64,000 bases of DNA. Source: Flavobacterium xinjiangense (GTDB lineage: Bacteria; Bacteroidota; Bacteroidia; Flavobacteriales; Flavobacteriaceae). Positions 4,781 to 57,934 of the stretch are shown here, piece by piece. Under the pieces are notes generated by a model. It did not search any database. It was not told the DNA's origin and worked only from the letters and a program-made list of their open reading frames with translations. Each line of letters starts with the position of its first letter. The first letter of the stretch is position 1. The position numbers were made by a program, and so were the translations under genes. The stretch lies in assembly GCF_900142885.1 (NCBI RefSeq), contig NZ_FRCL01000002.1:62001-126000 (forward strand). The letters run 5' to 3'.

Positions 4781-7700
4781 ATGAATAAAACTTTACTTTC
4801 TTTATTTAAAGGGAAACTTTTTCTTATTTTTTTTGTTTTAATATCATCTGTTTCTTTTAGTCAAACTACCCTTTTTCAGTTTGATTTTGAGAGTAATACA
4901 GGAACAGCAATCCCGAATATTGATAATGTTATTGGAAGTCCAGCCTTCGGTTTATCTGGAGTGGCTTCACCGTCTTATACAAATGCATCTCCTTGTCAAG
5001 GAACGTATATGGTTACTGGTTCCAATTGGAATACAGGGGATTATTATCGATTTACTGCAAATACCACAGGATTTGGTGCTATGACTTTTTCATTTTGTAA
5101 TAGAACTAGTAATATTGATATTGGCACATTTTTGGTAAAAGTAAGCTCTGATGGTGGAGTGAATTGGGATACAGTATTAGGGGCTTTTACGCCAACCACA
5201 GTAAACAATACGCTTACGACCGTTACCTTTCCAATAACTTCTGATAATGCAGCTGAAGTATTAATAGAAATAACAAAGCTTGATAAAGCAAATAAAGTAG
5301 ATAGAACTTTTATTATTGATAATGCAACGTTGAAAGGATATCCAATCCCAACAATTACAAGTTTTAATCCAACTACAGTTTGCCCAGGCGAATCAATAAA
5401 TATAGCAGGTACTAATTTTGCTGGAGCAACTGGAGTTTCGATTAATAATTTGGCTGTTGCTTCATACACAGTGAATTCATCAACAAGTATTACAGCAATT
5501 CTTTTGTCAGGAAATACAAGTGGAATAGTGAAAGTTTCAAATGTGTATGGTAAAGGAACTAGTGGAAGTTCTCTGGTAGTAAATGCAGTACCAACTATTA
5601 CAGTTTCACCAACAGTAGCAAGTCTCTGTGCTAATACTGTACAAGTGCTTTCTGCCACAACTGCCGCTTCAGTTACTGCAATTATAGGGACTGGAACGTT
5701 AACCAATACTGCTAATGCTGATACAGCTACCGATTATCCTGCTCCTTATGGTGCGTGGTATGAAAACGTAAAACAACAATATTTGATTTTAGCCAGCGAA
5801 TTAACGAGCTCTGGCCTTGGGAATGGCTCTGTGATTAATAGCCTAACATTTGATGTCACTACTCTTGGAACTTCTGGAATTCATACAGCATATACAATTA
5901 GTATGGGAAATACACCCCAATCCTCTATTACTACATGGGAAAATGGTTTGACGACCGTTTTTGGACCTACCAATTACCAACCGGTAAACGGAGCTAATAC
6001 ACACAATTTCACAACATCATTTGTTTGGGATGGTATTTCTAATATTGTTATTCAAATTTGTCACACGAATGATGATAAAAACTCCGGGAATAAATACACC
6101 GTAAATGCGCAAAGTAAGTATTCAACTACCACATTTAATAGCTCTTTGACCTATAGAGTGGATAATACGGATGGATGTGGATCATCTACGATTAGCTATA
6201 CTGAAGCTCAAAGACCTAATATGAGATTTACGACAGCTGCTCCAACTGTCGCTTGGTCTCCAATAACCAATTTATTTACGGATGCTTTAGCAACTACGCC
6301 CTATCTAGGAAATAATTTAGCTACGGTTTATGCGAAGCCAACGGCTACTATTATTTACTCTGCGAAAGTAACTTCGGCAAATGCCTGCTCCAATTCAGTA
6401 ACTTCGAATTTAACTGTAACAGGTATACCAACAGTACCAATAGTAATTCTCAAAAAACAGCCTGATTGCATCACATCGACAGGAAGTGTTCAATTAACAG
6501 GGTTGCCGGCAACTGGTTCTTGGACTATTATTCCAAATCCAGCTACCGCTGGGTTAACAGGTCTTACGGGCTCAGGAATAGATAATACAATTGTAGGAGG
6601 GTTGACTGCAAATACATCTTATACCTTTACGGTTTCCAGCGGGGCATGTCCTTCGGGAACATCTACTAGTACTATGATAAACCCTGTGGTTACAACAACT
6701 TACAATGGTACATCGTGGAGCTCCGTACCCGATTTAACAAAAATTGGGATTTATACTACTTCTGGAAACCTTTCTGCTAATGTAGATTTGTGTTCATGTA
6801 CGGTTAGCACGGGTGTGAATATAAAAGTGCTTACAGGTGTTGTAGTAAAAATTCAGGATAAACTAAGTGTTAATGGATCATTAACTTTTGAAGATGGCTC
6901 TAGTCTTGTTCAAATCAATGATGCTGCTGTAAATACAGGAATTATAACGTATAAAAGAACAACAACAACGCAAATAGATAATTTTGATTATACCTATTGG
7001 AGCAGTCCTGTCTCTGCACAGAAATTAATTGATGTTTCTCCTAATACATCTTTAGATAAGTTTTACTCTTTTAATCTTGCTGCGAATGATTGGTACCAAG
7101 AAAACCCAAATAACAATATGATTAATGGGATTGGTTATATTATTCGAGGGCCTCAAACCTATGTTGCTCCGGCTCCTCCAAATTTTTATCAAGCGCCTTT
7201 TAAAGGAATTCCAAATAATGGTGCTGTTACAGTAACTATTCCTCCAACAGCTGCAGCACTGGAAGCCTCGGCTCTTTTAGGAAATCCTTACCCCTCGGCT
7301 CTTAATGCAGATTTGTTTTTAATTTCGAATATGACTACTGCTTTAGAAGGGACTTTATATTTTTGGACACACAATACAAATATTGGAGCGGGTTTAGCAA
7401 ATCTTGGGTCAGGAGCATATGCTTACACTTCAGATGATTATGCTACGTATAACTTGACAGGCGGAGCTGCTACAGGAATTGGGACGCCAGCGGCGGGTAT
7501 AAATAATAGCGTGCCAAACGGTAAAATCGCTTCAGGACAAGCTTTTTTCGCAGGGATTAAGCCTGCTGGAGGAATTGTTGCTTATAACAATAGTATGAGA
7601 TTAAGTACTGCTGGTGTAATACTGGATAATTCTCAGTTTTTTAAACTTAACAATTCAAAAGCGGAAGTAAACAGTTTCCTTGAAAAAGATAGAGTTTGGC

Positions 7701-8356
7701 TCAATTTATATAACAGTCAAGGTGCTTTCAAACAAACTTTAGTAGGTTATATTACAGGAGCTACAAATGAATATGATAATGGGTATGATGGCGAAACTTT
7801 TGATGGAAATGAATTTGTAGATTTTTATAGTGTTAACCAAGATAAAAATCTGGTAATTCAAGGCAGAGCTTTACCTTTTGATGTGGATGATGAGGTTCCT
7901 ATAGGTTATAAAACTACTATTGCCGGGGATTTTACTATTGCTATCGCTCAAACAGATGGGTTATTAGTGGGAAAAGATGTATTTCTTGAAGATAAAATTA
8001 CCAAGTCAGTGAAGAACCTTAAAGGTGCGGTTTATAATTTTAACACTGGGGCAGGGACTTTTAATGATCGTTTTGTATTAAAATATAGTAATAAAACTTT
8101 AGCAAACGAAAGTTTTGAGACGTTAAATAATACCGTTTTGGTTTCTGTAAGGAACAAAATTTTTAAAATTAATTCTTATTCAGAAAAAATAGAGAATGTT
8201 CAGGTTTACGATTTATTAGGAAAATCAATTTATAAAAACGGTAAGGTAGATGCAAATGAAGTAACAATTTCTACTATAATATCGAATCAGCAAGTTTTAT
8301 TGATTAAAATTAAGTTAATCAATGGTCAAATAGTGACAAGGAAAGTAATTTACTAA
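4781..8356 (+). CDS. Giant secreted protein, IPT/TIG-like N-terminal part, T9SS type C-like sorting tail
   Basis: 1191 residues with a signal peptide (GKLFLIFFVLISSVSFSQ). The first ~170 residues resemble a jelly-roll domain (FDFESNTGTAIPNID ... FIIDNATLKGY). An IPT/TIG-like segment follows at ~190-270 (PTITSFNPTTVCPGESINIAGTNF ... VKVSNVYGKGT). A further beta-rich region around 320-490 contains NVKQQYLILASEL and NIVIQICHTND. Residues ~718-1191 are the shared module (YTYWSSPVS, FKGIPNNGAV, LLGNPYPSALNAD, LYFWTHN, IASGQAFFAG, GTFNDRFVLKY) and tail VQVYDLLGKSIYKNG. No enzyme motif is seen. The C-terminal 250 residues are very close to those of the truncated protein at the window start. A T9SS cell-surface or released protein of unknown ligand is the best reading. 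Confidence 0.87.
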   Translation: MNKTLLSLFKGKLFLIFFVLISSVSFSQTTLFQFDFESNTGTAIPNIDNVIGSPAFGLSGVASPSYTNASPCQGTYMVTGSNWNTGDYYRFTANTTGFGAMTFSFCNRTSNIDIGTFLVKVSSDGGVNWDTVLGAFTPTTVNNTLTTVTFPITSDNAAEVLIEITKLDKANKVDRTFIIDNATLKGYPIPTITSFNPTTVCPGESINIAGTNFAGATGVSINNLAVASYTVNSSTSITAILLSGNTSGIVKVSNVYGKGTSGSSLVVNAVPTITVSPTVASLCANTVQVLSATTAASVTAIIGTGTLTNTANADTATDYPAPYGAWYENVKQQYLILASELTSSGLGNGSVINSLTFDVTTLGTSGIHTAYTISMGNTPQSSITTWENGLTTVFGPTNYQPVNGANTHNFTTSFVWDGISNIVIQICHTNDDKNSGNKYTVNAQSKYSTTTFNSSLTYRVDNTDGCGSSTISYTEAQRPNMRFTTAAPTVAWSPITNLFTDALATTPYLGNNLATVYAKPTATIIYSAKVTSANACSNSVTSNLTVTGIPTVPIVILKKQPDCITSTGSVQLTGLPATGSWTIIPNPATAGLTGLTGSGIDNTIVGGLTANTSYTFTVSSGACPSGTSTSTMINPVVTTTYNGTSWSSVPDLTKIGIYTTSGNLSANVDLCSCTVSTGVNIKVLTGVVVKIQDKLSVNGSLTFEDGSSLVQINDAAVNTGIITYKRTTTTQIDNFDYTYWSSPVSAQKLIDVSPNTSLDKFYSFNLAANDWYQENPNNNMINGIGYIIRGPQTYVAPAPPNFYQAPFKGIPNNGAVTVTIPPTAAALEASALLGNPYPSALNADLFLISNMTTALEGTLYFWTHNTNIGAGLANLGSGAYAYTSDDYATYNLTGGAATGIGTPAAGINNSVPNGKIASGQAFFAGIKPAGGIVAYNNSMRLSTAGVILDNSQFFKLNNSKAEVNSFLEKDRVWLNLYNSQGAFKQTLVGYITGATNEYDNGYDGETFDGNEFVDFYSVNQDKNLVIQGRALPFDVDDEVPIGYKTTIAGDFTIAIAQTDGLLVGKDVFLEDKITKSVKNLKGAVYNFNTGAGTFNDRFVLKYSNKTLANESFETLNNTVLVSVRNKIFKINSYSEKIENVQVYDLLGKSIYKNGKVDANEVTISTIISNQQVLLIKIKLINGQIVTRKVIY

Positions 8357-21820: not shown

Positions 21821-21913
21821 TAGCCCTGATGGAAGTGGCATCCCACGCTTTTTGGCGTGGATACAACGGACAGCAGGAGTAGAGTTGTTGTGAAAATGGG
21901 TAGTTGTGCTCCT
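21821..21913 (+). repeat. Copy A of an ~80-bp structured intergenic repeat
   Basis: It begins TAGCCCTGAT and ends with ACGGACAGCAGGA and, after a ~25-bp insertion, GCTCCTAA. The core hairpin ATCCCACGC (21840-21848) / GCGTGGAT (21855-21862) has one bulged C. Outer CCTG (21825-21828) can pair with CAGG (21874-21877). Related copies are at 36123-36201 and, inverted, at 57854-57934. This copy lies in the gap between rplY and pth. Confidence 0.7.
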
Positions 21914-36122: not shown

Positions 36123-36201
36123 TAGCCCTGATAGCAGTAAAAATCCTTTATTGTTTTTTTTAAAACAATAAAGATTGAAACGAATAGCAGGATTAAGCTT
36201 C
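36123..36201 (+). repeat. Copy B of the structured intergenic repeat, inside the nuo operon
   Basis: It starts TAGCCCTGATAGCAGT and ends AGCAGGATTAAGCTTC. The core hairpin CTTTATTGTTTT (36146-36157) / AAAACAATAAAG (36162-36173) is perfect; with flanking AATC/GATT it keeps one bulged C as in copies A and C. Outer CCTG (36127-36130) can pair with CAGG (36188-36191). No U-run follows, so it should not terminate transcription of nuoI-N. Confidence 0.7.
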
Positions 36202-44025: not shown

Positions 44026-44487
44026 AATATATGTTATTAGTGTTTTGCCTACTCTTGAGCTTTTCGGCTTTCGCTTTTTTTACTTATTTGATTAGGTATA
44101 TTCAAGTAGCATGCCAAAGTTTTGAATCAAGTTTCAGTGTTGTTGTGCGAAGAGTTGCCTTTTATTTATTAACACGCAGTAAATCATTTGTTTGTGGGTT
44201 TAAAAAAAGATGATAAAATTTTTAAGTAGCCAATATTTAAGTTTTTTTTAAGTTTAATTCCTTCTTTGTAGAATGTGTTTTTTTAATTTCTGCTAAATTA
44301 TGGACTAAGAAAAAAGTAGAAATACTAAACCAATACCTATTTTTAATTAGTTAATTTTTAGTTGTCTTTAAGTAAAGCTAAATACAGTATGCAGAAGGTC
44401 TAAAATAGTTGTTCCGGTTTAGAATAGAAACAAAAAAAACCTGTTCAAATTAATGAACAGGTTCTTGTGATTTTAATATAAATTGTT
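44026..44487. other. 462-bp intergenic region
   Basis: It contains the RND-gene terminator at 44432-44463 and presumably the promoter of the minus-strand gene at 43312. Otherwise it is AT-rich; a 60-codon plus-strand frame at 44031-44213 is not convincing. No repeat or RNA is recognised. Confidence 0.5.
44432..44463 (-). terminator. Terminator of the efflux operon
   Basis: On the minus strand AACCTGTTCA (44463-44454) pairs with TGAACAGGTT (44447-44438) around 6 nt, ending in eight U (44439-44432). It lies 25 bp past the RND gene. Confidence 0.9.
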
Positions 44488-57853: not shown

Positions 57854-57934
57854 CAGGAGCTGTTTCCCGCTTTCCGTTACAATCTTTTTGTCTCAAAAAA
57901 GAGACAAAAAGGATTTTCACTGCAATCGGGGCTA
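57854..57934 (-). repeat. Copy C of the structured intergenic repeat, inverted, inside the sucAB operon
   Basis: Read on the minus strand it starts TAGCCCCGATTGCAGT and ends AAGCGGGAAACAGCTCCTG. The hairpin CTTTTTGTCTC (57884-57894) / GAGACAAAAAG (57901-57911) is perfect, again with a bulged C beyond it. The outer pair has changed together: CCCG with CGGG here, CCTG with CAGG in copies A and B. No U-run follows on the plus strand, so it should not stop sucB transcription. Confidence 0.7.

What the first reader, a model, noticed from the sequence alone, without database searches (positions are those of the whole stretch)
21821..21913. Structured intergenic repeat with compensatory base changes (three copies in the window)
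Seen: copies at 21821-21913, 36123-36201 and 57854-57934 (inverted) share TAGCCC[TC]GAT at one end, GC[AG]GGA and usually GCTCCT at the other. Their central hairpins have unrelated sequences yet pair almost perfectly, and each keeps an extra C at the same place (ATC-C). The outer CCTG/CAGG of copies A and B is CCCG/CGGG in C, a double change that keeps pairing. Inference: folding is selected, as in REP/MITE-type elements or a structured RNA. I recall similar strings in other Flavobacterium spacers but cannot check.
Basis: partly seen in the sequence, partly recalled or inferred. Interest (0 to 1): 0.7.

Follow-up and report, generated by a model that had tools for sequence, protein, structure and literature searches.

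The report
Flavo-1: folded, scattered bacterial DNA repeat
The three look-alike spacer sequences belong to a catalogued but unexplained RNA family, Flavo-1, and the evidence here suggests that it may be less a regular RNA gene than a small folding element that spread through these bacterial genomes and keeps its fold where it stays.

Summary
All three copies hit Rfam RF01705 (Flavo-1) at 52.8, 76.8 and 84.7 bits against a cut-off of 42. The window's genome holds at least 93 matches. Covariation is strong: one core pair is Watson-Crick in 51 of 51 own copies, in four pair types. So the family is known, and listed as abundant; its function is not.

New here. (1) Stem mismatches are G·T, rarely A·C (24:2 distinct contexts; 9:0 in copies antisense to both neighbours), so the element's own strand folds whatever the gene direction. 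(2) Orientation to genes is neutral. (3) In a distant relative (G142), copies 96-98% alike over about 95 nt end abruptly in unrelated flanks, which indicates spread. (4) At three housekeeping loci copies persist in place in many, not all, Flavobacterium genomes, still pairing, while hairpin tips change. (5) Y1_Tnp, the REP transposase, is not the evident partner.

Best reading: a non-autonomous, REP/MITE-like element recognised as a folded single strand and moved by an unknown enzyme. A structured RNA made from that strand is the main rival.

The parts
21821..21913 (+). Flavo-1 copy A, long form: TAGCCC 5' end to GCTCCT 3' end; between rplY (L25) and pth, antisense to both
   Evidence: (52.8 bits; orthologs; neighbours)
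21844..21859 (+). variable central hairpin of copy A, after the conserved extra C
   Evidence: tip differs in orthologs
36123..36201 (+). Flavo-1 copy B, short form, between nuoH and nuoI, sense to both; 3' tail is GCTTC
   Evidence: (76.8 bits; orthologs)
36147..36172 (+). variable central hairpin of copy B
   Evidence: turnover among orthologs
57854..57934 (-). Flavo-1 copy C, short form, between sucA and sucB, antisense to both
   Evidence: (84.7 bits; orthologs)

Best explanation
The three copies are members of Flavo-1, a small (about 80 to 110 nt) non-autonomous dispersed element that spreads through intergenic spacers and is recognised as one folded single strand, in the manner of REP/MITE repeats. 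An enzyme supplied from elsewhere would bind the conserved core (outer 4-bp stem, two purine-rich internal loops, bulged C) and the ends (5' TAG, 3' GCYCC plus A-run) and move the unit. The hairpin tip only has to pair, so its sequence is free and turns over. Shown: family membership, copy number, covariation, one-strand folding, orientation neutrality, dispersal of near-identical copies in a relative, long retention with continued pairing. Inferred: the single-strand intermediate, the enzyme in trans, and that the fold persists because it is recognised. Not identified: the enzyme.
For: Dispersed copies: at least 93 matches in the own genome and 59 and 86 in two complete genomes. Near-identical units with abrupt ends in unrelated flanks in G142; similar sets in G164 and G269/G133. 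Gene-orientation neutrality: of 59 own copies recognised, 13 sense, 21 antisense, 14 divergent, 6 convergent and 5 overlapping an ORF; in 80 of the 120 loci of the ends-only scan, 21, 22, 12, 6 and 14. One-strand folding: G·T 24 vs A·C 2 contexts over 277 elements, antisense copies 9 vs 0; in the sample chosen by its ends only, 15 vs 2 contexts, 31 vs 2 raw. Insertion-like polymorphism: locus B is occupied in 38 of 70 loci read and not in 32, in 17 of which the genes abut. Patchy presence across Bacteroidia: 56 of 198 genomes at E 1e-6.
Against: No transposase was found; Y1_Tnp does not track it. No target-site duplication was seen by eye at G142 copies. Copies at loci A, B and C stay for long and keep compensating base changes (n:n' and x:x' 33 of 33 at locus B and 16 of 16 at locus C), which looks like host-level selection rather than decaying transposon relics. 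No replichore strand bias in two complete genomes, which a lagging-strand ssDNA element would be expected to show. No match in viral contigs with two strict patterns. Clean dispersal was seen in relatives, not in the window's own genome, and five of the ten G142 copies share some 45 nt more on the left, so the unit's left end is not the same in all.
Confidence: 0.5

Rival explanations
1. Flavo-1 is a true structured RNA, as Rfam files it ('Gene; sRNA'): many dispersed copies are transcribed from their own strand, fold and do a job for the host (for example bind a protein or a partner RNA), and are kept by selection on the cell.
For: Own-strand folding in every gene orientation; pairing kept at orthologous loci over the genus; the element strand folds better than its complement as RNA in all four cases tested.
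Against: Orientation neutral to genes and, in Guerin 2021 (PMC9723704, passages read), hits lie indistinctly in sense or antisense of transcribed regions and many in none. No promoter-like conservation visible in the 30 nt upstream (judged by eye). Presence changes often at one site, and 8 of 101 genomes of the genus gave no match.
Confidence: 0.28
2. It is a recombination site like integron attC: a tyrosine recombinase uses one folded strand, reads structure and extra-helical bases, and leaves the terminal hairpin free to vary.
For: One-strand folding, conserved bulged C, free hairpin tip, absence by much the same short deletion in several lines. The likeness to attC is recalled, from no call.
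Against: No dense arrays of cassettes: copies are scattered over the genome. Recombinase association was not tested. In the empties the 3' tail is left behind, as simple hairpin deletion would do.
Confidence: 0.08
3. It is a RAYT-mobilised REP sequence.
For: Size class, extragenic place, palindrome and copy number fit; Bacteroidetes have a TnpA_Y1 subclass (2.6) flanked by atypical structures (PMC6006769, passages). Both Y1_Tnp genes of the own genome have a Flavo-1 within about 1 kb.
Against: Those two genes have different palindromes of their own beside them. The GTAG head is not met: G stands before TAG in 1 of 174. Presence does not track Y1_Tnp; 1 of 40 other Y1 loci scanned has a Flavo-1.
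Confidence: 0.07
4. It is a double-stranded protein-binding or chromosome-structuring site, or a terminator.
For: Often directly after a T-run (35 of 174 left flanks end in TTTT) and mostly in spacers.
Against: A double-stranded site would not favour G·T over A·C on one strand; the hairpin mostly has T on its 5' arm and A on its 3' arm, the reverse of an intrinsic terminator; no replichore pattern.
Confidence: 0.04

Closest known systems
Flavo-1 RNA (Rfam RF01705; Weinberg et al. 2010, PMC2864571, table row seen; PMC9029176, passages seen, lists it among the most abundant sRNAs with no function)
   Same: Same family: all three window copies pass its gathering score; same core structure; abundance is already noted in print.
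   Different: Rfam files it as an sRNA gene. Here: orientation-neutral, one strand folds in every gene orientation, a long form with about 26 extra nt before the 3' end, and near-identical dispersed units in relatives.
REP sequences with RAYT (Nunvar 2010 PMC2817692 and Di Nocera 2013 PMC3733652, passages seen)
   Same: Short extragenic palindromes in high copy, in which G·T pairs are often seen.
   Different: No GTAG head, 80-110 nt with a conserved internal-loop core, no RAYT partner found.
CGTC-tagged REPs (PMC3733652, passages seen)
   Same: High-copy palindromic repeats, also reported from Bacteroidetes, with no dedicated transposase known.
   Different: Flavo-1 has other ends (TAG... and ...GCYCC) and is longer than the 20-40 bp given for REPs.
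Integron attC sites (recalled, from no call)
   Same: One folded strand, extra-helical base, variable terminal hairpin.
   Different: No cassette arrays, other end sequences, recombinase untested.

Membership tests
Flavo-1 (RF01705) | score above the curated gathering threshold of the covariance model | tested here: met
   52.8, 76.8 and 84.7 bits against 42
Flavo-1 (RF01705) | covarying core stem | tested here: met
   x:x', n:n', pairs a and b, own copies n = 51, loci B n = 33 and C n = 16 (pair b at locus B: 30 Watson-Crick, 1 G·T, 2 A·A)
Flavo-1 (RF01705) | acts as a small RNA gene (Rfam type) | not testable with these tools
   no expression data; passages of PMC9723704 report hits in sense and antisense of transcribed regions and many outside them
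REP / RAYT system | GTAG (or GTRG) unpaired head | tested here: not met
   base before TAG is G in 1 of 174
REP / RAYT system | RAYT gene flanked by the repeat, presence tracking the repeat | tested here: not met
   own Y1 genes have other palindromes beside them, with a Flavo-1 about 1 kb off
MITE / non-autonomous mobile element | near-identical copies with defined ends in unrelated flanks | tested here: met
   G142 copies, (in a relative, not in the window's genome)
MITE / non-autonomous mobile element | terminal inverted repeats and target-site duplication | tested here: not met
   ends TAG... and ...GCYCC are not inverted repeats; no duplication seen by eye
MITE / non-autonomous mobile element | an autonomous partner with the same ends | tested here: inconclusive
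   isolated half-elements sought in 2.03 Mb of fetched DNA; no half-pair framing a gene was recognised
Integron attC | R and L boxes bound by an integron integrase; cassette arrays | not tested
   no integrase search was made; copies are scattered rather than arrayed

The most novel reading that the evidence does not exclude
Flavo-1 is the visible part of an unrecognised Bacteroidota system in which an unknown single-strand nuclease or recombinase, not a RAYT, reads a folded strand with a fixed core and a free hairpin tip, moves it between spacers, and lets retained copies keep their fold over a genus by a continuing role; an 'sRNA family' of Rfam would then be a folded-strand mobile element.
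Probability: 0.3. Interest if true: 0.7.

Novelty: new member of a known kind. Interest (0 to 1): 0.5.

Why it matters
Flavo-1 has been catalogued since 2010 without a function, and by Rfam's model tens of spacers in most Flavobacterium genomes would be annotated as sRNA genes. If it is a folded-strand mobile element, those annotations mislead transcriptome studies, and the partner enzyme is a discoverable new single-strand DNA processing system. If it is an RNA after all, its orientation-blind, one-strand selection is a puzzle that strand-specific sequencing can settle at once.

Tried and rejected
Rejected or weakened: (1) RAYT partner. (2) Replication-strand placement: in G010 198 of 300 and in G045 36 of 300 shuffles reach the best two-arc score. 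(3) Phage carriage: 0 matches with two exact patterns; the patterns are strict, so diverged copies would be missed. (4) An extra hairpin in the long form's added domain: mean stem score 9.63 against 9.14 in shuffles with a maximum of 10.16, and no convincing pairing in 2853 column tests. (5) An autonomous version with a gene between the two halves: none recognised. (6) A search for an empty allele of a G142 copy found no other genome of that family in the collection. (7) That hairpin tips are dispersed palindromes of the genome: a first test gave 20 of 48 tips with a 13-mer elsewhere against 4.6 expected, but its masking of Flavo-1 copies was too narrow; with wide masking it is 7 of 48 against 3.5. 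Only two copies (L029, L131) clearly carry a palindrome repeated elsewhere, so I dropped the idea as a general rule. (8) That tip palindromes are the repeats beside Y1_Tnp genes: 0 of 62 Y1 loci hold any of the first four tip motifs tried, and 1 of 62 the fifth.

Results against my reading: A·C-type mismatches are not absent in the core pairs (own copies: G·T 9, A·C 4). With hairpins clustered loosely the asymmetry is only 10 to 2 clusters, p 0.02. 16 raw mismatches of other kinds exist among the 277 elements. Hairpins with a poor ungapped stem were left out of the mismatch counts (4 of 118). The gene-orientation counts rest on a simple ORF caller; 5 own and 14 sample copies overlapping a called ORF were set aside. 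Copies found by the covariance model are biased towards good pairing; therefore one search uses a sample chosen by its ends only. The search that gave 93 matches scored 150 of 1194 candidates, so 93 is a lower bound; I fetched 90 of the 93 places. The genus search scored 41 candidates a genome with stricter filters, the class search 22. At locus B one 'spacer without element' (L202) holds a remnant of the 3' half, and at locus C one (L378) a decayed copy.

Full report
What was checked. The three places carry the strings described. A scan of the window against Rfam 15 returns Flavo-1 (RF01705) at exactly these three places, at 52.8, 76.8 and 84.7 bits against a curated cut-off of 42. So the finding is a correct, tool-free rediscovery of a known family. 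Weinberg et al. 2010 (PMC2864571; table row seen) list Flavo-1 with 'y' for RNA and 'n' for cis-regulatory, in Bacteroidetes. Guerin et al. 2021 (PMC9723704; passages seen) report that Flavo-1 hits lie indistinctly in sense or antisense of transcribed regions, and many in none. A 2022 review (PMC9029176; passages seen) lists it among the most abundant sRNA families with no function given. Two searches for its names returned five papers; passages were read in all five and none gives a function. One search for a mobile-element reading returned nothing. Most subscription journals are not held.

How many and where. The own genome has at least 93 matches, 87 over the cut-off (150 of 1194 candidates scored). 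In a genus sample, 93 of 101 genomes have a match. In a class sample (Bacteroidia), 56 of 198 genomes match at E 1e-6 under 24 family codes, patchily, and 0 of 14 control genomes. The same pattern found nothing in viral contigs. In the window, copy A lies between rplY (L25) and pth, copy B between nuoH and nuoI, copy C between sucA and sucB.

Anatomy. 5' TAGCCC x G AT n G m A G Y G ... ATC-C, variable hairpin, GAT ... R C G n A n' AGC x' GGA, then a spacer and GCTCC followed by A. Of 174 elements 125 have an exact GCTCC: 86 after 3-4 nt (short form) and 26 after 29-30 nt (long form), the rest between or beyond. Copy A is a long form. In own-genome copies that fit the frame (n = 51), n:n' is Watson-Crick in 51, in four types; x:x' in 47 plus 3 G·T, in four types; pair a in 42 plus 5 G·T; pair b in 44 plus 1 G·T. 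Shuffles reach at most 33, 28, 37 and 33.

Which strand folds. In the central hairpin, mismatches inside otherwise paired stems should be symmetrical between G·T and A·C if either strand, or double-stranded DNA, were what counts. Over 277 elements there are 24 distinct G·T contexts and 2 of A·C; in copies antisense to both neighbours 9 and 0, divergent 10 and 0, sense 6 and 1, convergent 6 and 1. In the sample chosen by its ends alone (120 loci, 118 elements, 114 used) it is 15 and 2 contexts, 31 and 2 raw. With hairpins clustered loosely it falls to 10 and 2 clusters. The core pairs of the own copies show 9 G·T and 4 A·C. So the element's own strand folds, whatever the direction of the genes. 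Orientation relative to genes is neutral, and there is no replichore pattern in two complete genomes.

Mobility. In G142 (another family of the class) ten copies, the query included, match at 87-100%. Of the four compared by pairs, three pairs share 96-98% over 94-96 nt, one pair 97% over 175 nt, and two pairs 85.5% over 145 nt. L452, L455, L457 and L461 have left flanks unlike each other and the rest, and the shared part stops at about TAG on the left and CCCCAA on the right, without a duplication that I could see; L453, L454, L456, L458 and L459 share some 45 nt more on the left; L460 is cut by a contig end, and L459 and L460 lack the usual 3' end. G164 (139-258 nt at 86-96%) and G269/G133 (about 310-330 nt at 86-94%; one pair between these genomes also shares neighbouring DNA) show similar sets. 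In Flavobacterium, locus B was read in 70 loci: 35 intact, 3 degraded, 15 with a spacer but no element, 17 with abutting genes. On a tree of the flanking genes, presence or absence needs at least 9 changes. Two occupied loci (L179, L190) sit in a well-supported clade whose ten other rows are empty, and their hairpin tips match those of occupied loci outside that clade. The empties of that clade keep the 3' tail at much the same junction. Recurrent loss is therefore likelier than re-insertion (inference).

Retention. Locus C, antisense to both genes, is intact in 17 of 30 loci read, degraded in 1, not recognised in 12. Locus A, also antisense, carries the long form in at least 17 of the 30 loci fetched, and 7 of the 27 spacers resolved have none. 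At loci B and C the core pairs stay Watson-Crick through changes: n:n' 33 of 33 and 16 of 16, x:x' 33 of 33 and 16 of 16; pair b 30 of 33 (plus 1 G·T, 2 A·A) and 16 of 16. The tip changes meanwhile. I could not show where new tips come from: a first sign that they are dispersed palindromes did not survive wider masking (7 of 48 against 3.5 expected). One copy, in L232, is an almost perfect palindrome, as if one arm had been copied from the other.

Partner. Y1_Tnp was the natural candidate. At least 18 genus genomes with Flavo-1 have no detectable Y1_Tnp, and 4 with Y1_Tnp have no Flavo-1 match (13 genomes without Y1 were not listed by name). G273 and G109 have 20 and 21 matches and no Y1_Tnp. 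Of 40 Y1 loci scanned, of 62 fetched, 1 holds a Flavo-1 over the cut-off. The two Y1 genes of the own genome do have a Flavo-1 within about 1 kb, but have different palindromes beside them. The four genomes with near-identical copies do have Y1_Tnp genes, but these do not bear the local element beside them. I therefore do not file Flavo-1 as a REP.

Verdict. A confirmed observation of a known family. The best-supported mechanism is a non-autonomous element recognised as a folded single strand and moved by an unidentified enzyme (0.5). A structured RNA made from that strand is the main rival (0.28); continued pairing at retained loci is its best argument, and lack of orientation and of an evident promoter its weakness.

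Noticed in passing
window 44046-44077 (-): Rfam match to DUF805b RNA (RF02914), 40.2 bits against a cut-off of 35.6.
   Followed up: no
L031 and L032 (own genome, Y1_Tnp loci): Two Y1_Tnp genes, each beside its own palindromes, unlike Flavo-1 and unlike each other.
   Followed up: partly
L120, L143, L147, L148, L150: Five own Flavo-1 copies carry an extra segment of about 45 nt (TTACTTCAC ... GTTCAGTGAA) next to a GAT of the core, on the 5' side in three and the 3' side in two.
   Followed up: no
L029 and L131: The hairpin tip of these two copies is a palindrome (around GGAACGAAGC) that recurs elsewhere near own-genome copies outside recognised Flavo-1.
   Followed up: partly
L232, about 5425: A Flavo-1 copy turned into an almost perfect palindrome, as if its 5' arm had been rewritten from its 3' arm.
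   Followed up: no
G045 (complete genome): Flavo-1 copies lie 58 on the plus and 28 on the minus strand of the record, with no arc pattern; unexplained.
   Followed up: no
L414-L417 (G269, G133): A shared unit of about 310 nt holds a Flavo-1 next to an intrinsic-terminator-like hairpin whose stem also varies between copies.
   Followed up: no
L234 (Pedobacter), about 7430-7850: Two direct Flavo-1 copies about 360 nt apart with similar left flanks, a local duplication.
   Followed up: no
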